From NCBI RefSeq assembly GCF_900104845.1, contig NZ_FNSR01000001.1, positions 1,488,001 to 1,552,000 on the forward strand: a stretch of 64,000 nt of DNA. The letters are read 5' to 3'. The stretch is from Paraburkholderia caballeronis. GTDB lineage: Bacteria > Pseudomonadota > Gammaproteobacteria > Burkholderiales > Burkholderiaceae. Under the pieces are notes generated by a model, which was not told the origin of the DNA, made no database searches, and saw only the letters and a program-made list of their open reading frames with translations. Positions 12,944 to 46,518 of the stretch are shown piece by piece (position 1 is the stretch's first letter; the number at the start of each line of letters is the position of its first letter). A program made the position numbers and the translations under genes.

Positions 12944-13011
12944 GGGGGCATCAGGGGGCACCTTCGGGGGAATTTGGTGAAATTTGCGATGCCCCCGGGA
13001 AAAATGCCCCC
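12944..13011. repeat. GGGGGCA repeats near the left attachment site
   Basis: Two direct GGGGGCA copies (12944-12950, 12954-12960) and two inverted copies TGCCCCC (12990-12996, 13005-13011) lie between the tRNA terminator and the integrase start. Matching direct copies lie near the right end (58185-58203). Repeated short sites on both flanks are what integrase arm-binding sites look like; binding is inferred. Confidence 0.55.
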
Positions 13012-13025
13012 TTGAAGGTGTTGCC

Positions 13026-28398: not shown

Positions 28399-28427
28399 CT
28401 CGGCAGAAAACGGTTGTCACGTAAATG

Positions 28428-29606: not shown

Positions 29607-29716
29607 CGGCAAGCCAGGATATCCATGTCGCGCGAATGATAGCGGGTCACGCGAAAGTTCGCGCCGTTCGTCGCGCTCTCGTAAGCGGGAACGGCGCTTC
29701 CCGGCAGCATTGCCAA

Positions 29717-30487: not shown

Positions 30488-30528
30488 GTCTTTTTTCGCT
30501 TGTCGTAAGAGAAACGATCAGCGCGCGG

Positions 30529-31320: not shown

Positions 31321-31455
31321 CGTCAATGCCTCAGCCAGGGGCGGCACCTTTGCCGCCGTGATGGGAACAGACGTCGCGGCCACACGGAGTCGAGCTTCGC
31401 CGTCCATGGTCGAGATGATCGCACCGGACATTTTTGATTTCTAGACTCGGTGCCA

Positions 31456-31470
31456 ATATTTTGCAAATAT
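31456..31470. promoter_or_regulatory. Candidate operator in the divergent promoter region
   Basis: ATATTT-TGC-AAATAT is a perfect inverted repeat with a 3-bp centre, AT-rich in GC-rich surroundings. It lies 136 bp before the phosphatase gene and 102 bp before the divergent binding-protein gene. It could bind the DeoR-type regulator encoded nearby. Confidence 0.5.
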
Positions 31471-31571
31471 CCCCAAAAACACACATCGCTCGTCGGCTGG
31501 TTTGCCAGGTTTTATGCAGCGCCGTGTGCTCCCGGTTCCGGTGTTGGTCTCTTTCTTTTAGGAAAATCGCC

Positions 31572-32588
31572 ATGCGCTTCGGCAACACATTCACCTCGGT
31601 TCTCTCAACTACGCTGCTCGTCTGTTCGGCCATCGGCACGGCGCACGCCGGCCAGATCACGGTCTACTCCGCGCTCGAAAGCGACGAGATTGCGACCTAT
31701 ATCGCGGCCGCCAAAAAGGCTCTGCCCGATCTGCAGGTCAACGTGCTGCGTCTGTCTACCGGCGACCTTGCCGCGCGCATGATCGCGGAGGCCAGTGCCC
31801 CGCACGCCGACGCTGTCTGGGGCGAGGCGCTCACCAATCTGCTGGACCCGCGCATCGCTGACCAGCTTGCGCCGGTCCAGGGCGGCAACATTTCCGGCTT
31901 GCCGAAGCAGTTCAAGGATCCGGGCGGCAAATGGTTCGCCGCGACGGGCTACATGGCGGCGTTGTGCGTCAACACCGACGCCCTCGCGGCAAAGAAACTG
32001 CCGATGCCGACTTCATGGGAGGATCTGGCCAAGCCTGTTTACAAGGGCAATGTCGTCATGCCGGACCCGGCGTCGTCAGGTACGGGTTATCTGCAGATAG
32101 CCGCAATCCTGCAGGGCGCGGGCGAAGATCAGGGCTGGAAAATTCTCAAGGGACTTGGTGCGAACGTCGCGCAGTTTACGTCGTCGGGCTCGCAGCCGTG
32201 CAAGCTCGCGCGCACTGGCGAATATGCGGTCGGCGCATCGTTTGCGTTCGTCGCGATGCAGTCGATCAAGGCCGGCTTCCCTGTGAAGATGGTGATCCCG
32301 TCGAAGTATGTCGGCTATGAACTCGAAGGTTCCGGCATGCTCAAGACGTCGAAGAATCAGGCCGACACGAAGCGTTTCCTTGAATGGGTTGCGTCGCCCG
32401 AGGCGGCAAAAGTCTATCAGCAATACAAGGAAATCGTCACGACACCAGGCGTGAAACCGACCCAGGAGCAGATCGCCGAAGGACTGCCAGTGGACGTATC
32501 GAAGGTGCTCTATCCAATGGATTTCACCGCCTCTGCGAAGATGCACGACGCTGTGCTCAGGCGCTTCAAGACGGAAGTCATGCACTGA
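31572..32588 (+). CDS. 2-aminoethylphosphonate/iron-type periplasmic binding protein
   Basis: A 338-residue secreted protein with signal peptide SVLSTTLLVCSAIGTAHAG. The mature start QITVYSALESDEIATYIAAA and the segments DAVWGEALTNLLD, GKWFAATGYMAALCVNTDAL and PDPASSGTGYLQIAAILQGA are typical of the putative 2-aminoethylphosphonate binding-protein group (AepX/PhnS-like). The ATG at 31572 is the first after the AT-rich promoter region, with GGAAAA upstream. It is followed by its ATPase and a fused permease. The ligand is probably a phosphonate or another small organophosphate; the group also includes iron binders. Confidence 0.82.
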   Translation: MRFGNTFTSVLSTTLLVCSAIGTAHAGQITVYSALESDEIATYIAAAKKALPDLQVNVLRLSTGDLAARMIAEASAPHADAVWGEALTNLLDPRIADQLAPVQGGNISGLPKQFKDPGGKWFAATGYMAALCVNTDALAAKKLPMPTSWEDLAKPVYKGNVVMPDPASSGTGYLQIAAILQGAGEDQGWKILKGLGANVAQFTSSGSQPCKLARTGEYAVGASFAFVAMQSIKAGFPVKMVIPSKYVGYELEGSGMLKTSKNQADTKRFLEWVASPEAAKVYQQYKEIVTTPGVKPTQEQIAEGLPVDVSKVLYPMDFTASAKMHDAVLRRFKTEVMH

Positions 32589-32667
32589 AGCGCGAGACGC
32601 TCCAGCCTCTCGCTTCATGGCCCGGGCCTGCTCCCAGGCCGACCGCCAACGCCGGGAAAGTTCCACC

Positions 32668-33690
32668 ATGCATCTGTCCGTCACCGACCTCCTCAAGACG
32701 TTTTCGGGGCATGTCGCGCTCGAAAGAATCGACTTCGACGTGAACCAAGACGAGTTCGTCTGCCTGCTTGGCCCGAGTGGCTGCGGCAAGACCACGTTGC
32801 TGCGCATCATTGCCGGCCTGCTCGACGCCGATGGGGGACGTATCACCATGGGCTCGCAGTCGCTTCTGGACGTACCGGCCCGCGAACGGGGATTTGGCAT
32901 CGTGTTTCAGTCGTATTCGCTGTTCCCGAATATGACCGTGACACAGAACATCGGTTACGGAATGAAAATCCGTGGGCTATCCAAAGCGCACATCGACGCC
33001 CGCTGCAACGAACTGCTCGAACTGATCAGGCTGCCGCAGCTGGCGAAACGCTATCCTGGTCAATTGTCGGGCGGCCAGCAGCAGCGGGTCGCCATTGCCC
33101 GGGCACTCGCCGTCGATCCGTCGCTGCTGCTGCTCGACGAGCCGCTTTCCGCACTCGATGCACAGGTGCGTGTGGAGATGCGCCGCGAGATTCACGACGT
33201 ACAGCGTCGGCTGCGCATTCCAACCATCATGGTTACGCACGATCAGGAGGAGGCGCTTACACTCGCCGACAAGATCATCTGCATGAACCACGGCCGGATC
33301 GAGCAGATCGGCGCACCGCGGGACCTTTACGAAAGTCCGCGCACACGCTTCGTTGCGCGCTTCATCGGCACCTCGAACCTCTTGCCCGCCGGCTGGGTCT
33401 GCGACGCGTTTCCAGCGCTGATGGCAACTTATCCCGGTGATCCGGATACAACATTCGAAGCCTGCGTGCGGCCTGAAGATCTGGTCGTCACGCGCCGTGC
33501 CGCAGCAGACCGTCGCGAAGACGATGCCCGGGTCGTCGATGCGATGTTCCTCGGCAGCACGACCCGCCTGCGGCTCGACTGGCGGGGGCAGGAACTTGTC
33601 GCCGAGCAACATCGGGGCGACGTGCTTGCGCCGGGCACGGCCGTGTCGCTTTCTGTCGCCAGCGACCGCTGCGCCTGGGTGAGCGCATGA
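32668..33690 (+). CDS. 2-aminoethylphosphonate-type ABC ATPase
   Basis: A 340-residue ATPase: Walker A GPSGCGKTTL, Q-loop VFQSYSLFPN, signature LSGGQQQRVAIARAL, Walker B LLLLDEP, switch MVTHDQEEA, and a C-terminal TOBE-like domain (ACVRPEDLVV, FLGSTTRLRLDWRG). It is about 80 bp after the binding-protein gene and overlaps the permease start by 4 nt (ATGA). The ATG at 32668 follows GGGAAAG. It belongs to the AepW/PhnT-type group and would drive uptake with its neighbours. Confidence 0.87.
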   Translation: MHLSVTDLLKTFSGHVALERIDFDVNQDEFVCLLGPSGCGKTTLLRIIAGLLDADGGRITMGSQSLLDVPARERGFGIVFQSYSLFPNMTVTQNIGYGMKIRGLSKAHIDARCNELLELIRLPQLAKRYPGQLSGGQQQRVAIARALAVDPSLLLLDEPLSALDAQVRVEMRREIHDVQRRLRIPTIMVTHDQEEALTLADKIICMNHGRIEQIGAPRDLYESPRTRFVARFIGTSNLLPAGWVCDAFPALMATYPGDPDTTFEACVRPEDLVVTRRAAADRREDDARVVDAMFLGSTTRLRLDWRGQELVAEQHRGDVLAPGTAVSLSVASDRCAWVSA

Positions 33691-35360
33691 ACGTGTCGCT
33701 TACGTCCTCACGTACCGCATTGGGTGTACGTGGCAGCCGCCTGATGTCGCGGTGCGTGCGCGGGGCGATGGTTGCCATCCCGCTTGCAGCCCTCACAGTC
33801 TTCTTCCTGTATCCGCTCGTGGTCGCTGCGTTCCACAGCCTCGCGGACCGGGATGGCCATATCGGACTCGCGAATTACGTCGCGCTTTGGCAGACGCCTG
33901 GCATGATCCAGTCGGCATGGCACAGCATCGTGCTGAGTGTCGCGACCACGATCGTCAGCATTGTGCTCGGGTTCATGATCGCGTTCGCGCTGTACCGCTC
34001 GCAGCTACCCTCGCCAAATGCGATCCGCGCAACACTTTTGCTGCCCATGCTCGCGCCGTCGCTGATGCAGGGTCTCGGCATTCTGTTCCTGCTCGGACGC
34101 AACGGTCTCGTACATAAATGGACCGGCTGGGACGTCGAGATCTATGGTTTCTGGGGCCTGCTGATCGCAGACGTCATCTATGCGCTGCCGCAGGCGGTGC
34201 TGATCATCGGTGCGGCGCTCGCGCAGTCGGACGCGCGCTATTACGATGCAGCCGACGTGCTGGGCGCGACGCGCCGTCAGCAGTTCTTCGGACTGACGCT
34301 GCCGAACGCGAAATTCGGGTTGTTGTCCGCTGCGTTTGTTGTGTTTACCGTCACGATCACGGACTTCGGCAATGCGGTGGTGATCGGCGGCGACTATCAC
34401 GTGCTTGCCACCGAAATCTATAACCAGGTATCGGGTCAGATGAATTTCGGTGTTGGAGCTGCGGTCGGCATCGTGCTGCTGCTGCCATCGCTCGCGTCCG
34501 TCTATATCGAGCGCGTTGCATCACAACGGCAATTCGGCGCAGCATCGGAAAGCCGCGTGCAGGTAATCCCAAGGGTGAACCGCATGCGCGACGTCCTGCT
34601 TGGACTCGGCTGCTTCGCGGCGCTGTTTCCCGTTGTGGCTTCGGTGGCCACGGTCGTCTTCGCGAGCTTCGTGCGCTTGTGGCCTTACCGGCTGGAACTC
34701 ACGCTGGCCAACTATAGCGGTGAATTATCCGGCGGATACGGTGCGATTCTGACGTCGCTCGAAATTTCAGTGGCCGCGGCAGCACTCGGTGTTTGCCTGC
34801 TGTTCTCGCTCAGTTACGGCGCGCGTCGCGTGCCCGCTGCGGTATCGAGGCTGATTTATACCGCCTCCGTGCTGCCAGCGGCCGTGCCCGGCATGGTCGT
34901 GGGACTTGCGTATATTCTCGCGTTCAATAGCGGCCCGCTCGGCGCATGGCTTTACGGTAGCGCGACAATCATCGTGCTGTGCAACTTCTACCACTACCAT
35001 ACCCAGGGCTTTCTGACGATGAGCACCGGGATGCGTGCCGTGCCTGTCGCACTCGAAGAGGTAGTGGACTGCCTCGGCGGCGGCCTGGGACAGGTGCTAA
35101 AGGATGCCGTTCTGCCGTTCGTCGCCGCGACGGCCATCAGCGTGTTTTTCTTTCTTTTTATGCGCTCGATGGTCACGCTCTCGGCGGTGGTCTTTCTGGT
35201 TACGCCATCGCTGAACCTTGCGTCGGTCGCGGTGATGCAGCTCGACGAGAACGGGTTCGTCTCGCAGGCTGCGGCCTACTCGACCTGCATCATGGCGGTC
35301 ACGTCAATCGCACTGGGCTTGATGCGGCTTTGTGCAAAGCACGTTACCCGTTCGCGTTAG
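33687..35360 (+). CDS. 2-aminoethylphosphonate-type ABC permease (fused double subunit)
   Basis: A 557-residue inner-membrane protein with about 12 helices. One chain holds both permease halves, as in the putative 2-aminoethylphosphonate permease group. EAA-like loops appear at YYDAADVLGATRRQQFFGLT followed by LPNAKFG, and at ALEEVVDCLGGGLGQVLKDA followed by VLPFVAATAI. The first helix is VAIPLAALTVFFLYPLVVAA-like in composition. Its start overlaps the ATPase stop. No phnW or phnX degradation genes are in the window, so the phosphonate label rests on transporter similarity only. Confidence 0.85.
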   Translation: MNVSLTSSRTALGVRGSRLMSRCVRGAMVAIPLAALTVFFLYPLVVAAFHSLADRDGHIGLANYVALWQTPGMIQSAWHSIVLSVATTIVSIVLGFMIAFALYRSQLPSPNAIRATLLLPMLAPSLMQGLGILFLLGRNGLVHKWTGWDVEIYGFWGLLIADVIYALPQAVLIIGAALAQSDARYYDAADVLGATRRQQFFGLTLPNAKFGLLSAAFVVFTVTITDFGNAVVIGGDYHVLATEIYNQVSGQMNFGVGAAVGIVLLLPSLASVYIERVASQRQFGAASESRVQVIPRVNRMRDVLLGLGCFAALFPVVASVATVVFASFVRLWPYRLELTLANYSGELSGGYGAILTSLEISVAAAALGVCLLFSLSYGARRVPAAVSRLIYTASVLPAAVPGMVVGLAYILAFNSGPLGAWLYGSATIIVLCNFYHYHTQGFLTMSTGMRAVPVALEEVVDCLGGGLGQVLKDAVLPFVAATAISVFFFLFMRSMVTLSAVVFLVTPSLNLASVAVMQLDENGFVSQAAAYSTCIMAVTSIALGLMRLCAKHVTRSR

Positions 35361-36259: not shown

Positions 36260-37183
36260 TTATGCCGTCGATCCGGCCGTGGGAGTGACGATCTGCCGGC
36301 GCAGGGCAGCGGCCTTCGCCTGGGAACAGTGCAGGTGCTGCCGGATACCGGAAACGGTTGGCCGCACGAGACCGGCCGCGATGTCGCGGGTCAGCTGCGT
36401 CAGTTCAGTTTCCGTTTCCGCGACTATGGGAGGCGATCCAACCGTTTCGGATGGGACTATCGTGACGACTGGATTACCTGCTGCGGCGGCACCCCGGTCC
36501 GGTGACGGTAGCAGCGCGATCCACCACAGAAGGCAGGCGATGCCTTCGAGTACGGCCGCGAAGGTCAGCCCGGCGAACAGGTCGAGCTTCGATACCGCCA
36601 TCCCGATGAGAGCCCCGAGCCGCGCTGTGACCGGATCGTCACGGGCGGAGTCGCGACGCGCAGCGTTCGTGTCCTCGATTCCCTGTAGCCGCCGGACTTC
36701 GCCTGCTTCCGCATCAAGCGCGTCGAGTCTCGCCGCCAGTGATACGCGACGCGCCCGCAGCGACGGGCAGTCACGCACACATCGCCGGGCATTCGCTACC
36801 GCCAGTTCGGCCGTGACCGACGCCCGTTCCGACATGACCGCCGGGAGACTGCGGTGAGCTGGGAGGCTGTTCGCCGGTAGCGATGTCGCCCGAAGCGTTC
36901 CTGCGTGTGATTGCGACAGCAGGAAGAACGTCGCATGCCCGTACGATGCCGCCACCATGCAGCCGAGCCACAGCACGATACCGACACCACGAACCGCAAG
37001 CGGTGCCGGACGGCACAGTGCGGGGAGCAGATGCGCGCCGCCGACCAGTACGACGCCCACCGCCACCCACACCAGCCGCTCCGACGGCCACCCGCCGCGC
37101 TGCCAGCCGGCCAGCACCGACATGCAGATGGCCGTTCCCGTTGCCGCGACGGCCAGAAGCCGGGCAGGGCGCAGCCAGATCAT
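36260..37183 (-). CDS. ICE/plasmid-type membrane protein of unknown function
   Basis: A 307-residue protein with three N-terminal hydrophobic segments (ARLLAVAATGTAICMSVLAG, LVWVAVGVVLVGGAHLLPAL, GIVLWLGCMVAASYGHATFF), a long polar central domain with two cysteines (RRCVRDCPSLRARR) and coiled-coil character (LAARLDALDAEAGEVRRL), a fourth membrane segment (LTFAAVLEGIACLLWWIALL) and a cytoplasmic tail that looks like a helix-turn-helix (GLVRPTVSGIRQHLHCSQAK). I do not recognise the family. It overlaps the upstream gene by 4 nt. It may sense or link the membrane to DNA of the element. Confidence 0.65.
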   Translation of the reverse strand: MIWLRPARLLAVAATGTAICMSVLAGWQRGGWPSERLVWVAVGVVLVGGAHLLPALCRPAPLAVRGVGIVLWLGCMVAASYGHATFFLLSQSHAGTLRATSLPANSLPAHRSLPAVMSERASVTAELAVANARRCVRDCPSLRARRVSLAARLDALDAEAGEVRRLQGIEDTNAARRDSARDDPVTARLGALIGMAVSKLDLFAGLTFAAVLEGIACLLWWIALLPSPDRGAAAAGNPVVTIVPSETVGSPPIVAETETELTQLTRDIAAGLVRPTVSGIRQHLHCSQAKAAALRRQIVTPTAGSTA

Positions 37184-38088
37184 GCCGCCGCCCCGCCCAG
37201 GAGGGCTGCCCGCTGCTCCAGCCGGTCCTTCAGGCTCGGCCGCTCCGTCATGGTGTCAGTTACGGCCGTACTGCTGCCGCCTTCCGGCTGGGCTGGATAG
37301 AACTCGTCGACGACGGCCGCCCCATCCTCGATACTGTCCTCGAACGCACCGTTACCGAACCCGGCACGTGCGGCAGTGTCGAGTGCTGCCTGATCGAACC
37401 CGGCCGTCCTGCGCCGCGCATCCAGTTCACGCGCCTCGGCAATCGCCGCTTCGAGCGTGCTACCTGAGCGAACACCGATATCCACGTAGTAGATCGCCGA
37501 ACGGTAGCTCTGCGTGGTCGACTTGCCGCGCAGCCTCAGTTCCAGTGGCAGGCAGGCGAGCAGGTTGCCTGATACCGCGCTGAAGTAATGCAGCCGCGCG
37601 GCGAGCGTGCGGATCGAGTTGTACGAGGTCGTTCGGAAGATGAACGAACCCAGTTCATCCTCATCGCCGATCGTGACGTTGAGCCGCCCGTACGGCTTGC
37701 AGTTACCGGTGCGACCGAACGCACAGCCGTCCGGCGACGGGCAGGGCAGTTCCTCGATACCGGCGTCTCCGGCGCGACGGCACATTTCGCCGTTGCCGAC
37801 GCAGACGGGCCGTCCGGACTCGCGGTCGAACAGCGAATACTCGGCACGCAGGTTCAGGTCGGGATCGTTGAACAGGAACCGAACGGGAATCGCGCGCAGC
37901 TTGCCGGTACTGGCCCTGCGCAGCGATTCGTTGAGCGGATGCAGCATCCAGCCTTCACGGTTCTGGACCTGGGTGGTGATTGTGAACTGGTCGTCTTTCT
38001 CGGGAAGCCGCCTGCCGTTCTTCTCGACGACGCGGCCAATGGAAATCCGCCCGATGACGGGCGGCGTGATGGCGAAACCCTTCAGCAT
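37180..38088 (-). CDS. Recombination-directionality-factor-like protein
   Basis: A 302-residue protein. ITPPVIGRISIGRVVEKNGR and QFTITTQVQNREGW, with LNESLRRAS and IPVRFLFNDPDLNLRAEYSL, match proteins related to phage recombination directionality factors (Gp3-like). A cysteine-rich stretch MCRRAGDAGIEELPCPSPDG followed by CAFGRTGNCKPYGR could bind metal, and database names of the 'hydrolase or metal-binding protein' type come from this. Serine-integrase RDFs belong to this group, but no serine integrase is present. It sits with exonuclease and DUF932 genes, suggesting DNA recombination. Confidence 0.65.
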   Translation of the reverse strand: MLKGFAITPPVIGRISIGRVVEKNGRRLPEKDDQFTITTQVQNREGWMLHPLNESLRRASTGKLRAIPVRFLFNDPDLNLRAEYSLFDRESGRPVCVGNGEMCRRAGDAGIEELPCPSPDGCAFGRTGNCKPYGRLNVTIGDEDELGSFIFRTTSYNSIRTLAARLHYFSAVSGNLLACLPLELRLRGKSTTQSYRSAIYYVDIGVRSGSTLEAAIAEARELDARRRTAGFDQAALDTAARAGFGNGAFEDSIEDGAAVVDEFYPAQPEGGSSTAVTDTMTERPSLKDRLEQRAALLGGAAA

Positions 38089-38123
38089 GGGAATGCTCCT
38101 GTAGGCAGGGGAGAAAATGGTAG

Positions 38124-39119
38124 TCAGACCGACACGAGAAACCGGCGCGAACCCGGCTTCTTGATTGCGTATTGCGCGGCAAACTCCGGGTGATCGGCGA
38201 GCAGGCGTTTGAGGTCGACGCCGGAGCCGTCCCTGCTGCGCCTGAACGACACCGAGCCCGTCTCGAACTGCGCCCGGTCGGCTTCGCCCATCGCCTGCTG
38301 GATCGTCTGCTTCAGCGTCGCTTCGACCTGCTGGCGTGCCTCGATGTCGGCCCGCACGGCAACCAGATCAGCGAATACCGACGACAGTTGCCGGTCGCCA
38401 GAGAAATCGACCGTGCCGCCGGCACCCGGGTACAGGCAGCGCAGCGCACGGTCGGCCGATTCCGAGCCGTCCGCTGGCGGCGGCGTATCGGTTTCGACAT
38501 ACCGCCAGAACGCGGCTTCGAGTTCGATCAGCCGCGCGATCAGTGCGTCGTCGCGCTCGATGCGGTGCACGTCGAGTTTCTGGCCGCACAGCAGCACGGC
38601 GACGTCTGCCGCGGATTTGCCGGTAACGGCGAGCTGGTGCTGCACCTGGACCTGCACGTACTCGGGGACGCCTTCGCGCCAGTGCCGCGCGCCGAATTCG
38701 CCTGCCGTCTTGCATTCAAGGATCTGGACGCCAGGCACCCCGACGACCTCGCGGTCGATGTTGGCGAGCATGAAGGGGATCGTGGGATGCCGGAGCACCG
38801 CATTGATGCGCCGGACCCGGTTGTCGGTCTGCTTCGTATACGAGGCGGCGACAATCGGCTCCAGCAGCGTGCCCCAGTACACCGGCTCGGTCGTATCGTC
38901 GGCATCGGGCTTCGGCAGGCTGGCATCGCGGCCGGTCTTGATGAGCCACAGTTCGAGCGGACTCATGTACGGATTCAGCCCCACGGCAGCGGCGGCGTCG
39001 GAACCGCCGATCCCGGACTTTCGTACTTCCAGCCAGTCCTCGCGCGGCATATCCTTCGTTTCCACGAGCCGCAGTGCCGGACGGTTCCGGCTGGAGCCTC
39101 TCTTTTCGGGTTGAGACAT
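38124..39119 (-). CDS. YqaJ-family viral recombinase (lambda-type exonuclease)
   Basis: A 331-residue DNA exonuclease. The YqaJ fold is visible: MPREDWLEVRKSGIGGSDAA, AVGLNPYMSPLELWLIKTGR, TEPVYWGTLLEPIVAASYTK, the active-site stretch MLANIDREVVGVPGVQILEC-KTA (acidic residue, E-x-K) and EGVPEYVQVQVQHQLAVTGK. The enzyme makes 3' single-stranded ends for annealing. A RecT/Bet-type annealing partner is not obvious; the neighbouring proteins may take part. The ATG at 39119 follows GGAGG by 5 nt. The C-terminal 80 residues form a coiled coil. Confidence 0.88.
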   Translation of the reverse strand: MSQPEKRGSSRNRPALRLVETKDMPREDWLEVRKSGIGGSDAAAAVGLNPYMSPLELWLIKTGRDASLPKPDADDTTEPVYWGTLLEPIVAASYTKQTDNRVRRINAVLRHPTIPFMLANIDREVVGVPGVQILECKTAGEFGARHWREGVPEYVQVQVQHQLAVTGKSAADVAVLLCGQKLDVHRIERDDALIARLIELEAAFWRYVETDTPPPADGSESADRALRCLYPGAGGTVDFSGDRQLSSVFADLVAVRADIEARQQVEATLKQTIQQAMGEADRAQFETGSVSFRRSRDGSGVDLKRLLADHPEFAAQYAIKKPGSRRFLVSV

Positions 39120-39140
39120 AGAAACCTCCAGATGTGAAAA

Positions 39141-39169
39141 CGCCCGGCGGGGAAGATCCCGGCCGGGCG
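39141..39169. repeat. GC-rich gene-boundary hairpin
   Basis: CGCCCGGC (39141-39148) pairs with GCCGGGCG (39162-39169), with further G-C pairing inside the loop. It lies between the DUF932 gene stop and the YqaJ gene start. Confidence 0.55.
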
Positions 39170-39188
39170 TGCAGGTCATTGGAAACGG

Positions 39189-40151
39189 TCATGCGACGAG
39201 CTTCATCGCCTCGTCCCACGCTTTCTGCTTGAGCGTGGCACCTGCACCGAACCATGCGGCGTCGCGCCGGTGGTCGTCGCTGCGCGCGCGGCGCTGATGA
39301 TCGACGAATTCGGTAACCGAATTCAGGAGACCCCACGCCGTACCGGCCGCAGAGGGCAGTGTTGCGCCCTTGCCGCGGCCGGCGTAGAGCATCTGCACAG
39401 CCTTGACCGCGCTGTCGTTGGTGGCGGGTGCCGGCGAGCCGGTCGTCGCCGGATACGTCAGCACGCGGCGGAAGAACGCTTCGGCCGCCGCGTCATTCAC
39501 CTTGCGTTCGGCCAGCGCCTTCATGCGGACCATGAAGCCATCCCACGACGAGATTGCGATGCCGAGCTGGCGCTTGACCGCCTGCGCGTCGAACTGGCTG
39601 CGGTGCGGCACCTTGACGGCGCCCGCGCTGTCTCCGAGCGCAATCGCCAGCGTGTTGTTGCACACGACCCTCACGGACGTGAACTGCGCGGTGGTCGCGA
39701 GTGTGCCGTCGCACGCAGTGGCGAGCAGCAGGTAGCCGTTCACCTGGTCCTTGCCTTTGAGCGAAGCCGACTGACCCGTACGGGCGAGCGCCCAGAGCTT
39801 CCTGCCTTCCTTGAGCACACCGGCGGTTTCGAGCTGGAAGCCGCCGACCTCGGTGAGATCCCGGTAGAACTCCAGGATTTCCGCCGGCTGCACGACCTGG
39901 TAGCGCGATGAGACGACCGACAGCGGGGCTTTCGTGTCCGACCGGTAGAGCACGCGTTGCTCGGGAAAGGCATGGATGGCACCGAGTCCACCGGCCGGAC
40001 CGGCGACGAACCGGACTTCGGAGGATTCGATGCGCCAGTCCATGCCGGCCTGCTTTGCCCAGACTTCGATGGGCTGATTAGGGGAGAGTTGGTTGCCGAG
40101 GCTGTGCCACGGCGTCTGGCCCACATAGGCCATGCTTTGTACGAGATGCAT
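39189..40151 (-). CDS. DUF932 phage/plasmid-like protein
   Basis: A 320-residue cytoplasmic protein of the DUF932 family (phage/plasmid-like protein): TPWHSLGNQLSPNQPIEVWA, MDWRIESSEVRFV, VLYRSDTKAPLSVVSSRYQV, GYLLLATACDGTLATTAQFT and SVRVVCNNTLAIALGDSAG are typical. The biochemical role is unknown; it commonly accompanies recombination genes on plasmids and ICEs. The ATG at 40151 has GGAGG five nt upstream. It is followed by a GC-rich hairpin and then the YqaJ gene. Confidence 0.85.
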   Translation of the reverse strand: MHLVQSMAYVGQTPWHSLGNQLSPNQPIEVWAKQAGMDWRIESSEVRFVAGPAGGLGAIHAFPEQRVLYRSDTKAPLSVVSSRYQVVQPAEILEFYRDLTEVGGFQLETAGVLKEGRKLWALARTGQSASLKGKDQVNGYLLLATACDGTLATTAQFTSVRVVCNNTLAIALGDSAGAVKVPHRSQFDAQAVKRQLGIAISSWDGFMVRMKALAERKVNDAAAEAFFRRVLTYPATTGSPAPATNDSAVKAVQMLYAGRGKGATLPSAAGTAWGLLNSVTEFVDHQRRARSDDHRRDAAWFGAGATLKQKAWDEAMKLVA

Positions 40152-40181
40152 GAATACCTCCAGTAAAGGAAAGGGCATAAG

Positions 40182-40200
40182 GCCCGGCGTGAAGCCGGGC
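40182..40200. repeat. GC-rich gene-boundary hairpin
   Basis: GCCCGGC pairs with GCCGGGC around a 5-nt loop, between the zinc-ribbon protein gene and the DUF932 gene. It resembles the hairpins at 36240 and 39141. Confidence 0.55.
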
Positions 40201-40255
40201 GCCGAGAAAGGAGACAGGGGAGAAAACAGACCGGTCAGGGTGACCGGTTGACGGT

Positions 40256-40672
40256 TCAGGGCTGGGTAGTGCTGAAGGTGCGCTGGCAGTCGAGGCAGCG
40301 GGCGTTGTCGAGCACGCGGGCGTCGACCATTTCACCGAGCGCGATGCCGGTTGCGCAGCCGGCCGCCCCGCCGGCGAGCCCGGCGAGAATGGCGCCGGCG
40401 ATGCCGCCGCAGGCAGCGCCGACCGGACCGGCGATGAGGCCGAAGGTGGCACCGGCCTCCGCGCCAGAAAGTGCGATGGTTATGCTGCTGACGGCGCCTG
40501 CCACGGTGCCGGCGGTACCGCCGACTTTTCTTGCGCGGTTGAGTGGCTCGACACGGGAGGACTGGCAATACGGACAGATAAGGTGGGCTCCGGAACTGTA
40601 CGGAGGATAGGTTGTGCCGTGATTTTCGCCGTCACGGTTCCAGTCGGGTTCGTTGTCGAAGGGGTCATGCAT
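40256..40672 (-). CDS. Small protein with split zinc ribbon and glycine-rich hydrophobic core
   Basis: A 138-residue protein. A CPYCQSSRVEPLNRARK motif (near residue 33) and a C-terminal NARCLDCQRTF give two CxxC pairs that could make one zinc ribbon. Between them is a long glycine/alanine-rich stretch (GGTAGTVAGAVSSITIALSG, AGATFGLIAGPVGAACGGIA, GAILAGLAGGAAGCATGIAL), a glycine-zipper-like region likely to enter a membrane or self-associate. I know no name for it. It overlaps the upstream small membrane protein gene by 8 nt. Confidence 0.6.
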   Translation of the reverse strand: MHDPFDNEPDWNRDGENHGTTYPPYSSGAHLICPYCQSSRVEPLNRARKVGGTAGTVAGAVSSITIALSGAEAGATFGLIAGPVGAACGGIAGAILAGLAGGAAGCATGIALGEMVDARVLDNARCLDCQRTFSTTQP

Positions 40673-40781
40673 GGTGACCGATCTTGCGGAATTGGCAGCC
40701 GAGACCCGACGACCAGATGACGCCGGCAATGAACACGACAGCGAATGCAAGCAGGTATTCGAGGGGGGAACTGCTGGACAT
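40665..40781 (-). CDS. Small single-span membrane protein
   Basis: A 38-residue protein: MSSSSPLEYLLAFAVVFIAG, then VIWSSGLGCQFRKIGHHA, with one hydrophobic helix and a basic C-terminus. A GAGG site lies 8 nt before the ATG and the stop region overlaps the zinc-ribbon gene start, so the two are probably cotranslated. The family is unknown; the clear helix, ribosome site and overlap make it credible despite the size. Confidence 0.55.
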   Translation of the reverse strand: MSSSSPLEYLLAFAVVFIAGVIWSSGLGCQFRKIGHHA

Positions 40782-41034
40782 ATCACGTTCCTCGTGATGT
40801 GCGCCCGCGCGGAGTTGCGCCGGCGGAGCGGGCGATGTGCCCGGCTCAGGTTCGTGATATATGACTGAAAATTTCTGGGATCTGAAATCGGTCGCTGAAT
40901 CGAGGGAGCGTGGTCTGAGTGCACCGATCAGCCACTTTCTGTCATTCGACATTGCTGGCGGGACCTTCGGGCAGGGGCATATTTATTGATTACGACTATT
41001 TCAGCGGTAGTGACGGCAATATTGTCCGGCTACC

Positions 41035-42234
41035 TTAAAAAGGGCGGATGTAAGCGCTGTATTTGTGCTGAACCGCAGATGAAAAGAATCCACCGCATTC
41101 GTGTCTGCGGGCACATGGTCTGCAAGTCTCAACGTATTCGTTCTTCCAGTCCGAGATAGACCGTCTGTACGCGCTTTTGATGTCGTCGTTCACAAGACAG
41201 AGTTGATGGTTGTACACCGAAACATGCAGCCCATAATCCTCCAGCATCCGAACGGCGTGGCTTAGACTATCCTTGTAGTCGAATGGGTCAACCCATAACT
41301 CATCAAGGTTTGCGCGAGTGAATCCCGTAATTTCCAACCCCATGAGCGCGACATGGTCGACGAATAGGAGATTCCGTACGATGTACATCGCGAGCTGCTC
41401 GAGTCTTGGGACGCTCAACGCATGCAAGACCACACGAATCTCGACCTTCTGCTGAAATTCCTTAAGGTTCAGGACGCCGCGCACCGTCTCGTCGAACGCT
41501 CCTTTGGCTTGCACGATGTGGTCGTGAATCGACGCATCATCTGAATAGAGCGGGATTCCGATGGTTACGTCTGGATGCGCAATGGCCGCATACCGCCTTG
41601 CAAACACACGGTCGGCGAAGCTCCGGCCGTTGGAGAGAATATGAATCTTCGTGTGCGGCAATAACGTCTTCGTAAGGCGTAGCGTTTCGAGGAACCGGTC
41701 GCCGAAGAGCGTCGGTTCTCCTCCTGTAAAACCCAACACCTCCGTAGAACGCGGCATGAGCCGAATCAGTTCTTTCGCCTCGTCGTCGAGCCAACTATCG
41801 TCAACATTCTTCGGAGGCTGCGAGCACATAAGGCAATAGTGCTGGCACTGCTCTGTTACCAGGATTGTATTGTGAGGGCTACTACGTCGATACAAAACGC
41901 GGATGTTGCCTCCCTCCGTATTGAGTCGCACAATGTCGCCATCGTCGAGATAGTGGAATTCATCAGGAAGCACGGTTAGTGCCGAATCGAATTCGGCCGG
42001 CGACACACTGCCCGAGTCCCGCTTCAGGACCAAATAGTGAGCATACCCAGTCGGTGCCGAGCCATCGCGCAGCAGGTAGGCGCTCTTCCGGCGCACAGCG
42101 TCTGTCACAAACCGGGAACCGGTAACAACAGGAAGAAGAACGTTACTTCGGACGGTGCGAGGCGCTTGCCTTTCGCTCTTCGCTAGGCCTTGGATAGGGG
42201 TGATCGAAATGACCTTCCCGCCGAGCTTCAGCAT
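41035..42234 (-). CDS. hxsC: His-Xaa-Ser system radical SAM maturase HxsC
   Basis: A 399-residue radical SAM enzyme. The cluster-binding CxxxCxxC is Cys130, Cys134 and Cys137 in VTEQCQHYCLMCSQPP. The SAM-binding GGE motif is in EVLGFTGGEPTLFGDRFLET, and C-terminal cysteines (Cys371, Cys374, Cys380 in CRPCARRHECGGFF) may hold an extra cluster. It is the last gene of an hxsA-D-B-C order and overlaps hxsB by 7 nt. In the HXS system two radical SAM enzymes are thought to modify HxsA; the chemistry is not established. The start MLKLGGKVISITPIQ lies inside the hxsB end, as usual for coupled genes. Confidence 0.88.
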   Translation of the reverse strand: MLKLGGKVISITPIQGLAKSERQAPRTVRSNVLLPVVTGSRFVTDAVRRKSAYLLRDGSAPTGYAHYLVLKRDSGSVSPAEFDSALTVLPDEFHYLDDGDIVRLNTEGGNIRVLYRRSSPHNTILVTEQCQHYCLMCSQPPKNVDDSWLDDEAKELIRLMPRSTEVLGFTGGEPTLFGDRFLETLRLTKTLLPHTKIHILSNGRSFADRVFARRYAAIAHPDVTIGIPLYSDDASIHDHIVQAKGAFDETVRGVLNLKEFQQKVEIRVVLHALSVPRLEQLAMYIVRNLLFVDHVALMGLEITGFTRANLDELWVDPFDYKDSLSHAVRMLEDYGLHVSVYNHQLCLVNDDIKSAYRRSISDWKNEYVETCRPCARRHECGGFFSSAVQHKYSAYIRPF

Positions 42235-43685
42235 TGCGCCACCCAGCTTTGAAAAATATCCTTTGTACTGGAGTCGGATTCCATCATCGCAATGAGCCGT
42301 CGAAAAATTGTCATATTGCGCCGGCAGAAATCAGATGATGGCTTACGCCCCACGACGTCACCATGTACAGCATGGGCATAGATGGGGTCCGCTCCGCAGA
42401 ACGGTTCGAATGCGCACTCCGAGCACATCGGGACTGACAGCGTGAAGGAGTCTTCGAGCGCCCCAAGCAGTTGCTCTGAAAGGAAGATGTCCTCGTAGCT
42501 GTTCTCCAGGACATTTCCGAGCTTGAAAGTCGTATCGCCCATTTCTGCCAGCATTCGGGCTTCGTCAGAGGCGAAAACGCCACCGTCATAGTTGAAAACC
42601 ACCGCAGCGGTGCCAATGCCGGCTGGATTCATGAGGTCGACATAGCCCGGGTCATTCGATGTCAGCATTTTCTGGAGTACGAGTGCCGCGTAGTGTTCTC
42701 GAAAGGGGACGCCACTCCGGTTCAGTTCCAGGACGTATTCAAGACCCTCGAAATAGAAATCTAGCCAGCGGGGCAGGTCATACCCGTCAATGGTTTTGGT
42801 CTTAACTGCGAATCCATAGGGGGACAGGGGGCGCAAGAAGATTCCATCGAAGCCATGCGTCACATATTCGTCGATGATTTCCCTAACGCGTGACAGGCTG
42901 TGCTGCGTTGTAGTCATCAACGCCGACACGCGGTCGAAACCTACAATCTCGCGCGCTTTCTGTAGACCTTGCAGGTAGCGTTCATAGCTATCGCGTCCCG
43001 GCCGGGGACGATTGCGGTTATGAAGGTTCGCCGGGCCGTCGAGCGATGTCGACAGCAGGATATGATGGTCGCGGCAGTATTCGAGGATTTTCTGGGTCGC
43101 GAGCGACAGCGTCGTCGCGATAACGACTTCCAGTTCGCGCGATGCAATCCTCGCACGCTGCTCGGCTTTCTCAACAATGTAGCGAACCAGGTCGAAATTC
43201 AATAATGGCTCGCCACCCTGAAACTCGAGTTTCAGCGCCGGCGATGGTGACCGGAACATCAGGTCGAGCGCATGGTCCGCAATTTCGTACGACATGTCGA
43301 AAGCCGCCCTGTCCTCAGACTGTCTGGATACCTGGCAGTATGGGCAGCTATGGTCGCAACGGAGGGTGGCTACGAAGATGTGCAGGTTCGTAAAATTCGG
43401 TAGCCGCTGGTAACGGGTTCGTGTCTTGAGTGCGAGCAGTTCCCGGGGCGAGCGATCGCCCTGCACTTCGATGAAGTGCTTCGCTCGTAGTTCGCGGAAC
43501 AATGTTTCAGCAGGATGCAACTCGTGACCAACGAGCCGTTCGAGGTTACCCCGGTCAAGAGTCACGTATTCGCCAACCATGTTGGTGGCGACGTAACGCT
43601 CGCTGTCCAGCCTTGTGAAGTTAAACGGCAATAGCGAATACACGCCGTCAGTTGCGAAAGCGGACGGCGGAAGAAACTTGCTCAC
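42228..43685 (-). CDS. hxsB: His-Xaa-Ser system radical SAM maturase HxsB
   Basis: A 485-residue radical SAM enzyme. The N-terminal 95 residues resemble the precursor-recognition part of peptide maturases (SLLPFNFTRLDSERYVATNM). The CxxxCxxC is Cys110, Cys114 and Cys117 in ATLRCDHSCPYCQVS; a GGEPLLN motif follows in KLEFQGGEPLLNFDLVRYIV. A SPASM-like C-terminal cysteine set (Cys421, Cys424, Cys430, Cys454: CSECAFEPFCGADP and DFCRRN) suggests auxiliary clusters. It starts 9 bp after hxsD and overlaps hxsC. It should act with HxsC and HxsD on the histidine/serine repeat of HxsA. Confidence 0.9.
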   Translation of the reverse strand: MSKFLPPSAFATDGVYSLLPFNFTRLDSERYVATNMVGEYVTLDRGNLERLVGHELHPAETLFRELRAKHFIEVQGDRSPRELLALKTRTRYQRLPNFTNLHIFVATLRCDHSCPYCQVSRQSEDRAAFDMSYEIADHALDLMFRSPSPALKLEFQGGEPLLNFDLVRYIVEKAEQRARIASRELEVVIATTLSLATQKILEYCRDHHILLSTSLDGPANLHNRNRPRPGRDSYERYLQGLQKAREIVGFDRVSALMTTTQHSLSRVREIIDEYVTHGFDGIFLRPLSPYGFAVKTKTIDGYDLPRWLDFYFEGLEYVLELNRSGVPFREHYAALVLQKMLTSNDPGYVDLMNPAGIGTAAVVFNYDGGVFASDEARMLAEMGDTTFKLGNVLENSYEDIFLSEQLLGALEDSFTLSVPMCSECAFEPFCGADPIYAHAVHGDVVGRKPSSDFCRRNMTIFRRLIAMMESDSSTKDIFQSWVAQC

Positions 43686-43694
43686 AGCCAGCTC

Positions 43695-43991
43695 CTACGT
43701 CAGCCCTGTCCTTGAGAACGCGTGCGCAAGGATGAGATGCCTGATTGATTCGGTCTCTGATGCGATTTTTGCCCGAAGCTGCTGGTCCAGCACCTCCTTG
43801 TGGAAATCGCGCGCCACTTCGTCAACGGCATTCCCTGTGTCGACAAGCAGCACACACCTGACGTGTGTTGGCGTCAGATCGAAGCTCACGGCGGCGCGGT
43901 CCACGAGACGATACGCGGCCTTCTGGACGATTTCCAGGGCGTAGACTTGCCGGTCGAAAAGGACTTCAAGCCCTTCGGCAGCGACATTCAC
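43695..43991 (-). CDS. hxsD: His-Xaa-Ser system protein HxsD
   Basis: A 98-residue cytoplasmic protein starting with GTG, whose start overlaps the hxsA stop by 4 nt. The stretch FDRQVYALEIVQKAAYRLVD, RAAVSFDLTPTHVRCVLLVD and DFHKEVLDQQLRAKIASETE, ending IRHLILAHAFSRT, matches the small HxsD component. It has no catalytic motif; a role as precursor carrier or scaffold, like the recognition proteins of other radical SAM peptide systems, is inferred. The gene order leaves little doubt about the identity. Confidence 0.85.
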   Translation of the reverse strand: MNVAAEGLEVLFDRQVYALEIVQKAAYRLVDRAAVSFDLTPTHVRCVLLVDTGNAVDEVARDFHKEVLDQQLRAKIASETESIRHLILAHAFSRTGLT

Positions 43992-44275
43992 GATGAGGAT
44001 GAGCGGTGCGAGTAGTGAGAGCTATGAGACGAATGGGAGCTGTGGTAGGCCATCACTTGACCACTTTGGGTGCGCTTGAGCACGAAATCGTACGCATCGT
44101 CACCGGCCCGAACAGTCAAATTCTGCGGTTCAAGCGCGTGGGCCACGTCGTTCGCCGTTCTGCCCATCTCACGTGGTTCGTGTATCGCGTCCGCAGGAGC
44201 GACCGCAGCGGTCGCATATTCTGTCGCGATCGCGGCGGCAATCGTTCCTACTGGAACTAAGAATTTTCTTTTCAT
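43988..44275 (-). CDS. hxsA: His-Xaa-Ser repeat precursor HxsA
   Basis: A 95-residue precursor. It starts MKRKFLVPVGTIAAAIATEY with a basic, hydrophobic N-terminus that may act as a weak signal or membrane anchor. The middle (VAHALEPQNLTVRAGDDAYD, FVLKRTQSGQV) is the conserved leader-like part. Five tandem His-Xaa-Ser units follow (residues 78-92: three HSS, HYS, HRS) and a polyserine end. The repeat is the predicted target of HxsB and HxsC. The ATG at 44275 follows GAGGGG closely; an upstream in-frame start at 44338 adds 21 residues without a better site. The modification and its purpose are unknown. Confidence 0.88.
   Translation of the reverse strand: MKRKFLVPVGTIAAAIATEYATAAVAPADAIHEPREMGRTANDVAHALEPQNLTVRAGDDAYDFVLKRTQSGQVMAYHSSHSSHSSHYSHRSSSS
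44000..44044 (-). repeat. Five tandem His-Xaa-Ser codon repeats in hxsA
   Basis: The 45-bp stretch encodes HSS-HSS-HSS-HYS-HRS. Codons for His and Ser vary (CAC/CAT; AGC, TCC, TCG, TCT, TCA), so the repeat is kept at the protein level rather than by recent DNA duplication. Confidence 0.85.
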
Positions 44276-44810
44276 GGTCCCCTCTTTCGGTTCGTTTGGT
44301 CTGAACGCTACATGTGTTTCGTCACACGGTTTCCCCACAATTTACGAAAGGGTAGCCGATGCGCAGGCAGTTTGAAAGTAAATTTTGTACTGCGCCGCAG
44401 GGTGTTCATATTCATGCATTTCGCATTGAGTGGCCGTCGGGAGCAAATCACGGAGAGGGAGGCGCACCAATGGTCGACCACGGAAGCTCGCTAGTCAACA
44501 GAGCCGCAGCGATTACCGGCGCTCGGCGAACTTCCGTGTCCGGCCATTTTCTGCCACTCGCCTGAGCCCTGCAGCGGTCACTCGAACGGCCGGTCCGCTC
44601 CGAAATCTGCCCGACGCTCAGCGCGCACTTGTCGAGCAAAAGTGGTCATTCCCCGTGACGCCGTAGTAGCTGGGACATCTCGCTAACATAAGCCGCGCAG
44701 GTCCGCTGCCTAGGCGTCGCCTACTCGCGCACTGCAGAGGCCGACCTCCGCGTTCGCGGAACGAGGGTTGCGCACTGGCCATCGCGGCACTTCAACCCAC
44801 GGAGGAAACC
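44276..44810. other. Intergenic region between the HXS locus and the redox block
   Basis: About 535 bp. The part next to hxsA must hold its promoter; no clear hexamers were fixed. Short frames near 44360-44570 look like chance or decayed sequence. GC rises towards the right, fitting a join between blocks of different origin. Confidence 0.4.
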
Positions 44811-45308
44811 ATGGCATCGCGCAAATCGCTACAAGACCTTTTTGTCCATTCGCTGTCGGATGTCTACAGCGCTGAAAAACAGTTGACGCGGGCGCTCGCG
44901 AAGCTCTCGCGCTCGGCGCAGAACGAGCAGCTATCCGAAGCATTCGAAACCCATCTTCAGGAAACGCACGGCCAGATCGAACGAATCGATCAGGTCGCCG
45001 AGGCCACCGGGTTCAAGCTCAAGCGCATCAAATGCGTCGCGATGGAAGGACTGATCGAGGAGGCGCAGGAACTGATCGAGGAGATCGAAAAAGGGCCAGT
45101 GCTCGATACAGGCCTCATCGGCGCGGCGCAGAAGGTCGAGCATTACGAGATCGCCGCCTACGGCACGCTCTGCGCGCTCGCGAAGCAACTCGGCCAGACG
45201 GAGGCGGCGAAGCTCCTGAAGCAGACGCTCGACGAAGAAAAGGCCACCGACCAGAAGCTGAGCGGCTTCGCCGAGCAGGTCGGCAACCCGCAGGCAAAGG
45301 CGGCGTGA
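44811..45308 (+). CDS. YciF/YciE-type ferritin-like protein (DUF892)
   Basis: A 165-residue four-helix protein of the DUF892 family: [40 protein letters not shown] and [20 protein letters not shown] carry the expected E/H ligands, as do [20 protein letters not shown] and [17 protein letters not shown]. coli YciE and YciF are stress-induced proteins of this fold. The ATG at 44811 follows GGAGGA by 6 nt. The zinc dehydrogenase gene follows after 40 bp, so they likely form a stress operon. Confidence 0.9.
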
Positions 45309-45348
45309 CTGGTGCACCCGCGCACCGACCAGTCAAAGGAGAATCCCA

Positions 45349-46518
45349 ATGCGAGCCCTACGTTGGCATGGAAAACACGACATCCGCTGCGACACCGTTC
45401 CCGATCCGGCGATCGAGCATGGCCGCGACGCGATCGTCAAGGTGACGAGTTGCGCGATCTGCGGATCGGATCTGCACTTATACGACGGCCTGATGCCGAC
45501 AATGGAGCGCGGCGACATCCTCGGTCACGAGTTCATGGGCGAAGTCGTCGAGGTCGGCGGCGAGAACCGCGCGCTGAAGGTGGGCGATCGCGTGGTGGTG
45601 CCGTTCACGATCATTTGCGGCGAGTGCGACCAGTGCCGACGCGGCAACTTCTCCGTCTGCGAGCGCACTAATCGCAACAAGGACAAGGCCGACAAGGTGT
45701 TCGGCCATGCCACGGCGGGCTTGTTTGGCTACTCGCATTTGACCGGCGGCTACGCGGGCGGTCAGGCCGAGTATGTGCGCGTGCCGTTCGCCGACGCTAC
45801 GCACGTGAGGATTCCGGACGGCCTGACCGATGAGCAGGTACTGTTTCTTGGCGATATCTTCCCGACCGGCTGGCAGGCGGCCGCGCAGTGCGAGATCGAG
45901 CCGACCGACACCGTCGCGATCTGGGGCGCGGGGCCGGTCGGACAGATGAGCGCGCGCAGTGCCATGCTGCTCGGCGCGAAGCAGGTGATCGTGATCGACC
46001 ATGTGCCAGAGCGTCTTGCGATGGCGCGCGAGAGCGGTGCGATCACCATCGATTTCGACAACGAGAGCGTGCTCGATCGCCTGAAGGAACTGACGGGCGG
46101 CAAGGGGCCGGAGAAGTGCATCGACGCAGTCGGAATGGAGGCCCACGTCACGCGTTCGTTCGATTCGGTTTATGACCGCGTGAAGCAGGCGGTGATGCTC
46201 GAAACCGACCGGCCGCACGTGCTGCGCGAAATGATTTACGTGTGCAGGCCGGCGGGGACGCTATCGATTCCGGGCGTGTACGGCGGGCTGCTCGACAAGA
46301 TTCCGTTCGGCGCGGCCATGAACAAGGGGCTGACGTTTCGCATGGGGCAGACGCACGTGAACCGCTGGACCGACGATCTGCTGAGGCGGATTCAGGAAGG
46401 GCAGATCGATCCGTCGTTCGTCATCACGCACACCGTCGCGCTCGAGGACGGCCCCGGCATGTACAAGACGTTCCGCGACAAGCAGGACGGGTGCATCAAG
46501 GTCGTGTTGAAGCCATAG
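45349..46518 (+). CDS. Zinc-dependent medium-chain dehydrogenase (formaldehyde-dehydrogenase-like)
   Basis: A 389-residue cytosolic oxidoreductase. Zinc ligands: [11 protein letters not shown] (catalytic Cys), [12 protein letters not shown] (GHE) and the structural four-cysteine lobe [20 protein letters not shown]. The NAD-binding Rossmann motif is [20 protein letters not shown], followed by [14 protein letters not shown]. The closest type I can name is glutathione-independent formaldehyde dehydrogenase or related zinc dehydrogenases; the substrate is unknown. Being upstream of formate dehydrogenase, a formaldehyde-to-formate step would make sense, but this is inference. The ATG at 45349 follows AAGGAG by 7 nt. 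Confidence 0.82.

What the first reader, a model, noticed from the sequence alone, without database searches (positions are those of the whole stretch)
41035..44275. Complete His-Xaa-Ser (HXS) radical SAM peptide-modification locus
Seen: four genes in tight order hxsA-hxsD-hxsB-hxsC with overlaps of 4 and 7 nt. HxsB and HxsC each have the CxxxCxxC cluster motif and extra C-terminal cysteines, and HxsA has the His/Ser repeats. Known: HXS is a family-level system recognised from genome comparison, with two radical SAM enzymes, a small HxsD and the repeat protein HxsA. As far as I know, its product and chemistry are not established. Inferred: the pair of enzymes modifies the repeat, perhaps with crosslinks or altered His/Ser side chains, for metal binding or an envelope function. 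This is the best candidate for a little-described system in the window.
Basis: partly seen in the sequence, partly recalled or inferred. Interest (0 to 1): 0.85.

Follow-up and report, generated by a model that had tools for sequence, protein, structure and literature searches.

The report
His-Ser repeat peptide-modification gene cassette
A compact four-gene cassette that very probably makes a chemical change on a short histidine-serine repeat of an exported protein; the family has been recognised for years, and this is a typical member of its tail-only subtype, but the chemistry of its product appears to be still unknown.

Summary
On the minus strand lie hxsA (43988-44275), hxsD (43695-43991), hxsB (42228-43685) and hxsC (41035-42234), with overlaps of 4 and 7 nt. 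All four pass curated NCBIfam cut-offs, but the substrate is HxsA2, not canonical HxsA. It is a new member of a known kind.

What I add. (1) In 42 tabulated loci (26 found through the window's own HxsB) there are two main layouts: hxsA2-D-B-C with a tail-only repeat protein (29, window included) and hxsD-B-C-A with the repeats followed by a peptidoglycan-binding domain (11); 1 is mixed, 1 has no hxsA found. (2) In 176 distinct HxsA proteins 1007 of 1008 units are H-x-S; the exception lies in a locus whose hxsD, hxsB and hxsC are each in pieces. (3) HxsB lacks the cysteine pair that its solved relative CteB has at the AuxI motif; HxsB and HxsC each keep 3+4 cysteines.

Best reading: HxsB/HxsC link His(i) to Ser(i+2) in each unit, like triceptide cyclophanes, and the product works in the envelope. 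The link is inference (about 0.4). The cassette sits in a lower-G+C region with mobile-element genes.

The parts
43988..44275 (-). hxsA2, repeat protein, 95 aa, ATG start
   Evidence: NF038296 101.9 bits, cut-off 48; alignment with 18 relatives
44204..44275 (-). signal-like N-terminus of HxsA2 (residues 1-24, MKRKFLVPV...ATAA); cleavage site not computed
   Evidence: conserved start in 19 rows; hydrophobic stretch and AxA by a simple scan
44000..44044 (-). five HxS units HSS HSS HSS HYS HRS (residues 78-92)
   Evidence: sequence; conservation of the unit
43695..43991 (-). hxsD, 98 aa, GTG start, overlaps hxsA by 4 nt
   Evidence: TIGR03976 58.1 bits, cut-off 50; 117 relatives
42228..43685 (-). 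hxsB, radical SAM maturase, 485 aa, GTG start
   Evidence: TIGR03978 622.6 bits, cut-off 370
43335..43358 (-). HxsB radical SAM cluster motif C110-x3-C114-x2-C117
   Evidence: 43 of 43 distinct HxsB
42324..42425 (-). HxsB C-terminal cysteines C421, C424, C430, C454 (probable single auxiliary cluster)
   Evidence: 43 of 43 distinct HxsB
41035..42234 (-). hxsC, radical SAM maturase, 399 aa, overlaps hxsB by 7 nt
   Evidence: TIGR03977 396.5 bits, cut-off 267.9
41824..41847 (-). HxsC radical SAM cluster motif C130-x3-C134-x2-C137
   Evidence: 43 of 43 distinct HxsC
41095..41199 (-). HxsC C-terminal cysteines C346, C371, C374, C380 (probable single auxiliary cluster)
   Evidence: 42 of 43 distinct HxsC; the one without is the short L005 row, which has gaps there

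Best explanation
An HxsA2-type HXS cassette. HxsA2 is made with a signal-like leader. HxsB and HxsC, each with a radical SAM cluster and probably one auxiliary iron-sulfur cluster, act on the H-x-S units in the cytoplasm, helped by HxsD. The most likely reaction is an oxidative link from the His side chain at position i to the Ser beta carbon at i+2 (a three-residue cyclophane), which would turn the tail into a rigid row of imidazoles. The protein is then exported and works in the cell envelope; canonical relatives hold on to peptidoglycan through a separate domain. Shown here: gene content, family membership, repeat conservation, cysteine pattern, layouts. Inferred: the chemistry, the order of steps, export, the function.
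For: All four family models over cut-off. 1007 of 1008 units in 176 distinct HxsA proteins are H-x-S with a variable middle; arrays begin at H (S precedes in 7 of 176) and end on xS (a further H follows in 1 of 176, the broken locus L022). The single deviant unit is in L022, where hxsD, hxsB and hxsC pieces lie in different frames. Known radical SAM cyclophanes are i/i+2 and include Phe-Ser (MscB), His-Ala (HaaB) and His-Arg (YhhB) (PMC11002830, passages). HxsB lacks the CteB cysteines of the C-x12-G-x4-C stretch (A355 and S373 in the window) (consensus over 43), and the arrays are almost free of cysteine, so this is not thiol chemistry. PF01471 follows the array in Aeromonas, Klebsiella and Hymenobacter HxsA. 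In 28 loci only HxsA recurs beside D-B-C in more than two lineage groups.
Against: No product is measured. Among curated models HxsB scores higher with ranthipeptide and other thioether maturases (PapB 101.7 bits, nif11-type 85.3, CcpM 76.8, SCIFF 66.9) than with cyclophane enzymes (GrrM/OscB 49.2, YhhB 48.1, AmcB 42.5) (25 of 56 models shown) or FxsB (29.1 bits). That characterised cyclophane enzymes keep a full SPASM domain is recalled; if so, HxsB differs. The cited His cyclophanes use Ala or Arg, not Ser. A single enzyme makes those links, and why two are needed here is unexplained. The deviant unit is one case and may include assembly error. No structure could be predicted.
Confidence: 0.42

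Rival explanations
1. HxsB or HxsC oxidises each serine (for example to formylglycine, as anaerobic sulfatase maturases do) or changes the configuration of a residue; the histidine serves recognition or later metal binding.
For: HxsB matches the anaerobic sulfatase maturase model (62.7 bits) and solved sulfatase maturases at 5.5e-6; serine is fixed in 1008 of 1008 units. Two enzymes could do two steps.
Against: It does not explain why His is fixed two residues before Ser (1007 of 1008). Conversion of serine by sulfatase maturases does not need such a repeat (recalled).
Confidence: 0.2
2. Divided labour: one enzyme makes a cross-link and the other a second change (epimerisation, oxidation or a link between neighbouring units).
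For: Two radical SAM proteins, present together in every one of the 42 tabulated loci where I looked (HxsB and HxsC); their C-terminal cysteine orders differ (three then one in HxsB, one then three in HxsC), and their nearest models differ.
Against: No direct evidence; HxsB and HxsC could also act as one complex on one reaction.
Confidence: 0.2
3. The His-rich tail is used unmodified as a metal-binding tail, and HxsB/HxsC act on something else or elsewhere in HxsA.
For: His-rich tails commonly bind metals (general knowledge).
Against: Fixed Ser at every third place; the array and the two enzymes travel together; the FVLKR..SG stretch before the array is conserved too.
Confidence: 0.07
4. HxsB makes thioethers like its relatives PapB and CteB.
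For: PapB model 101.7 bits; CteB 5wgg at 1.2e-12.
Against: Cysteine occurs at 4 of 1008 middle positions and at no first or third position; the window's HxsA2 has no cysteine; AuxI-motif cysteines are absent in HxsB.
Confidence: 0.02

Closest known systems
HXS system (NCBIfam TIGR03976, TIGR03977, TIGR03978 with NF038296 HxsA2)
   Same: All four proteins over curated cut-offs, gene order and overlaps as in 28 other tabulated loci of the tail-only layout.
   Different: Not canonical HxsA (19.9 of 121.65 bits): no peptidoglycan-binding domain, array at the very C-terminus, gene upstream of hxsD.
Triceptide three-residue cyclophane enzymes (MscB, HaaB, YhhB, OscB/GrrM)
   Same: Substrate motif has an aromatic-type residue at i and an acceptor at i+2; Phe-Ser and His-X links are known (PMC11002830, passages).
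   Different: Only weak sequence similarity (GrrM/OscB 49.2 bits of 310, YhhB 48.1 of 445); two enzymes and HxsD; tandem units; no product known.
PapB and CteB (SCIFF) thioether maturases
   Same: Closest curated non-HXS model (PapB 101.7 bits of 340) and best PDB match by sequence (CteB 5wgg, 1.2e-12 over 107-430).
   Different: HxsB has A355 and S373 where CteB has the cysteines of the AuxI motif; the substrate lacks cysteine.

Membership tests
HXS system | HxsB over TIGR03978 cut-off | tested here: met
   622.6 bits, cut-off 370
HXS system | HxsC over TIGR03977 cut-off | tested here: met
   396.5 bits, cut-off 267.9
HXS system | HxsD over TIGR03976 cut-off | tested here: met
   58.1 bits, cut-off 50
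HXS system | HxS repeat protein beside the maturases, HxsA2 model | tested here: met
   NF038296 101.9 bits, cut-off 48; five units
HXS system, canonical HxsA subtype | TIGR03979 cut-off and C-terminal peptidoglycan-binding domain | tested here: not met
   19.9 of 121.65 bits; no Pfam match
Three-residue cyclophane enzymes (triceptides) | membership in a curated cyclophane-maturase family | tested here: not met
   GrrM/OscB, YhhB, AmcB and FxsB all far below cut-off
Three-residue cyclophane enzymes (triceptides) | substrate motif with residues at i and i+2 fixed | tested here: met
   1007 of 1008 units H-x-S
Three-residue cyclophane enzymes (triceptides) | C-C link made | not testable with these tools
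   needs mass spectrometry and NMR
SPASM (two auxiliary clusters) | AuxI C-x9-15-G-x4-C cysteines present (motif recalled) | tested here: not met
   HxsB: A355 and S373 aligned to the CteB cysteines; no other cysteine invariant in 43 rows beyond 3+4. Pfam SPASM match 14.4 bits, below 21.5
RRE (PqqD-like) leader recognition | PqqD-like domain in HxsD or in the N-terminus of HxsB or HxsC | tested here: inconclusive
   Profile comparison with 19 PqqD rows (one, L068, probably off-strand): probabilities under 2%; no structure could be predicted

The most novel reading that the evidence does not exclude
HXS makes tandem His(i)-Ser(i+2) cyclophanes with a pair of one-auxiliary-cluster radical SAM enzymes, giving a rigid, evenly spaced row of imidazoles in the periplasm that is held to peptidoglycan in canonical HxsA and is free, or held otherwise, in HxsA2. 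This would be a permanent structural modification of envelope proteins, possibly for metal or redox use, and not a secreted peptide antibiotic.
Probability: 0.3. Interest if true: 0.75.

Novelty: new member of a known kind. Interest (0 to 1): 0.45.

Why it matters
HxsB was over the cut-off in 14 of 398 sampled genomes of the window's phylum, matches 331 plasmid records at E<=1e-60 (307 of them Klebsiella) and an annotated phage record, yet the papers I could search give no product. The i/i+2 argument, the missing AuxI motif and the two layouts make the open question directly testable: co-express and look for -2 Da per HxS unit. The compact HxsA2 (95 aa, five units at the end of the chain) is a convenient substrate. 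A modified repeat held at the peptidoglycan would be an unusual permanent protein modification in the envelope.

Tried and rejected
Structure of HxsD: structure prediction was called 22 times and each time answered that the machine was busy; no model exists, so nothing is said about folds. A sequence search of the PDB with HxsD, or with its 79-row profile, gave one chance-level match each (0.28 and 0.19).

PqqD-like recognition domain: not detected. Thioether chemistry: rejected on the substrate and on the AuxI motif. A larger cassette with a dedicated partner: no gene beyond HxsA recurs in more than two lineage groups within 6 kb of 28 loci. A regulatory RNA: no Rfam match at gathering score in 40000-46000. 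Promoter and terminator scan: 0 promoter-like sites and 2 terminator-like sites, below the shuffle means of 1.7 and 3.7.

Empty site: the DNA right of the locus (44750-45350) was sought in 21 genomes (8 with a match, best relative 75% identity); I did not compare the flanks of these hits further. No direct repeat of 18 nt or more links the two ends of 12200-45000. The extent of the island is not settled.

Literature: Haft and Basu 2011 and Sugiyama 2022 are not held; what I say of the first is recalled, and what I say of the second comes from the review passages. That no characterised product is in print rests on searches only, in an open-licence library.

Mended on checking: the earlier count (181 protein strings, 1035 units) held a few genes twice with different start codons; distinct stretches are 176 with 1008 units (92 distinct arrays). 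My note of A356 in HxsB was wrong; it is A355.
Full report
What is there. On the minus strand of the window four genes lie in the order hxsA2 (44275-43988), hxsD (43991-43695), hxsB (43685-42228), hxsC (42234-41035), with overlaps of 4 and 7 nt and a gap of 9 nt between hxsD and hxsB. All four products pass the curated NCBIfam cut-offs of the His-Xaa-Ser system: HxsA2 101.9 bits (48), HxsD 58.1 (50), HxsB 622.6 (370), HxsC 396.5 (267.9). The substrate is HxsA2 and falls far short of canonical HxsA (19.9 of 121.65 bits). No promoter, terminator or Rfam signal stands out.

Where it lies. The window is part of a 7.1-Mb genome in three contigs. I take its genus to be Paraburkholderia, because the same-genus genome G125 has a contig of the same length (155525) as the one behind L021, Paraburkholderia sp. 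BCC1884. HxsB over the cut-off was found in 2 of 144 same-genus genomes, 5 of 369 in the class sample and 14 of 398 in the phylum sample (15 at E<=1e-80), the own genome counted each time. G+C is 0.53-0.58 over 41-45 kb, against 0.635-0.695 in 45-56 kb and 0.65-0.74 in 1-13 kb; between 13 and 41 kb it varies from 0.52 to 0.67. That stretch also holds a tyrosine-type integrase (12984-14240), a MobA/MobL protein (18307-19026), and YqaJ, DUF932 and Gp3-like (recombination directionality factor-like) proteins (37180-40178). Acquisition by mobile DNA is likely; the ends of the element were not found. Relatives of HxsB lie on plasmids and on two phage records that cover most of the protein, one of them annotated (Leptospira phage).

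Two layouts. Dropped: L022 and L023 (broken), and L001, L004, L024-L027 and L037-L048 (duplicates or shorter views; L047 was not fetched longer). Layouts: tail-only hxsA upstream of D-B-C 29; hxsA with a peptidoglycan-binding domain downstream of D-B-C 11; such an hxsA upstream 1 (Hymenobacter, L035); no hxsA found 1 (L092). In the 15 sampled genomes alone the counts are 5, 9, 0 and 1. Some loci are near-copies. On a tree of the 42 HxsB proteins these labels need 4 changes against 11.7 on average after shuffling (0 of 200 as low); long branches warn against reading the deep forks, and one tail-only row (L095) falls outside the main tail-only group (28 rows, support 87/84). The window groups with two Paraburkholderia loci (100/100), then Methyloversatilis (98/93). 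A Nostoc plasmid copy (L031) pairs with a copy from the window's own class (L089, 100/99), so the cassette seems to move between phyla. Pfam finds PF01471 in the HxsA of Aeromonas (4.1e-10), Klebsiella (1.4e-5) and Hymenobacter (3.3e-18); in the other loci the domain was called with a profile of my own. Of the 120 listed homologues of the Aeromonas protein (1023 passed the E-value limit) 115 carry PF01471 (counted in the list) and all 120 have at least three HxS in a row; the query itself carries both, so these shares are biased upward. Within 6 kb of 28 loci (337 neighbour ORFs of 80 aa or more) only HxsA recurs in more than two lineage groups. In the three most divergent loci (L101-L103) my HxsD profile finds at best a weak match (0.0032, 0.11, none); a small ORF ends at the start of hxsB in each, and in L101 and L103 it has a related motif.

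The repeat. Among 176 distinct HxsA stretches, chosen for at least three consecutive units, 1007 of 1008 units are H-x-S even though single bad units inside an array were allowed; they form 92 distinct arrays. The middle residue is S 409, R 353, Y 102, A 65, G 49, others 30. The array starts at H (S precedes in 7 of 176) and ends on xS (a further H follows in 1 of 176), so the unit is bounded as H-x-S and not as S-H. The single deviant (YSS), and the one array followed by a further H (HRW), are in the Caballeronia locus L022, where hxsD, hxsB and hxsC each match in pieces in different frames; that is one case and may include assembly error. Serine codons at the third place mix AGY and TCN in 13 of 31 arrays, and His codons are split CAT 99 to CAC 98, so the repeat is kept by selection on the protein. 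In 19 HxsA2 rows (window included) the N-terminus and the stretch FVLKR..SG before the array are also conserved. A simple scan finds an AxA after the hydrophobic stretch in 28 of 33 rows (no signal-peptide predictor was available).

The enzymes. In 43 distinct HxsB proteins the invariant cysteines are C110, C114, C117 and C421, C424, C430, C454; in HxsC they are C130, C134, C137 (43 of 43) and C346, C371, C374, C380 (42 of 43, the short L005 row having gaps). Rows dropped before this count: L001 (same as the window), L022 and L023 (broken). Against CteB (5wgg) the two cysteines of its C-x12-G-x4-C stretch align with A355 and S373 of HxsB; the family consensus there is sPaG and vyaSDE. That this motif binds AuxI is recalled. 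Each enzyme thus looks like a radical SAM protein with one auxiliary cluster, 'twitch' in the terms of PMC9012708 (passages). That CteB's AuxI helps bind the substrate thiol is recalled; its loss would fit a substrate without cysteine.

Mechanism. H and S are fixed and two residues apart while the middle varies. That is what a link between i and i+2 would leave. Published three-residue cyclophanes have this geometry: Phe-Ser by MscB, His-Ala by HaaB, His-Arg by YhhB (PMC11002830, passages). A His-Ser cyclophane combines a known first residue with a known third residue. Against it: by profile score HxsB lies nearer to ranthipeptide and other thioether maturases than to cyclophane enzymes, two enzymes are used where one suffices elsewhere, and no product has been measured. 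I put this reading at about 0.4, a serine oxidation or similar at 0.2, a two-step divided reaction at 0.2, and an unmodified tail at 0.07. The peptidoglycan-binding domain of canonical HxsA and the signal-like N-termini place the product in the envelope; what it does there is open.

Verdict. The finding is real and correctly named, with the subtype corrected to HxsA2. It is a new member of a known kind whose chemistry I found nowhere characterised (searches; passages). It is therefore of middling interest as a locus, and of more interest as a compact, testable example of an open system.

Noticed in passing
window 12500-45000: Region of lower and uneven G+C with an integrase at 12984-14240, MobA/MobL at 18307-19026, and YqaJ, DUF932 and Gp3-like genes at 37180-40178; probably one or more integrated mobile elements with HXS at the right edge. 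No flanking direct repeat found.
   Followed up: partly
window 25796-35360: Two sets of ABC-transporter genes on opposite strands (BPD_transp_1 at 25796-27391 and 33687-35360, ABC_tran at 28428-29750), with an inositol-phosphatase-family gene between them at 30529-31431.
   Followed up: no
window 40256-40924: 222-aa ORF next to hxsC, alanine- and glycine-rich by eye, without a Pfam match at 0.001.
   Followed up: no
L005:9067-9705: Two hxsA2 genes in tandem upstream of one hxsD-B-C in Methyloversatilis.
   Followed up: no
L022 (Caballeronia) and L023 (Cupriavidus pSym): Broken HXS loci: in L022 hxsD, hxsB and hxsC match in pieces in different frames and the array is degenerate; in L023 hxsB and hxsC are partial and hxsD was not found. 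They suggest that the array decays once the maturases are lost, but the number is small.
   Followed up: partly
L035:4818-5579: Hymenobacter has the tail-only gene order but an HxsA with a peptidoglycan-binding domain (3.3e-18), a mixed layout.
   Followed up: partly
plasmid collection: 307 of the 331 plasmid records that match HxsB at E<=1e-60 are from Klebsiella; in the one I opened hxsD-B-C-A lies between insertion-sequence genes.
   Followed up: no
L009:12647-17053 and L011:12701-17087: Limnohabitans and Neopusillimonas share three further genes directly downstream of hxsC; one looks like a carbamoyltransferase (recalled, not scanned).
   Followed up: no
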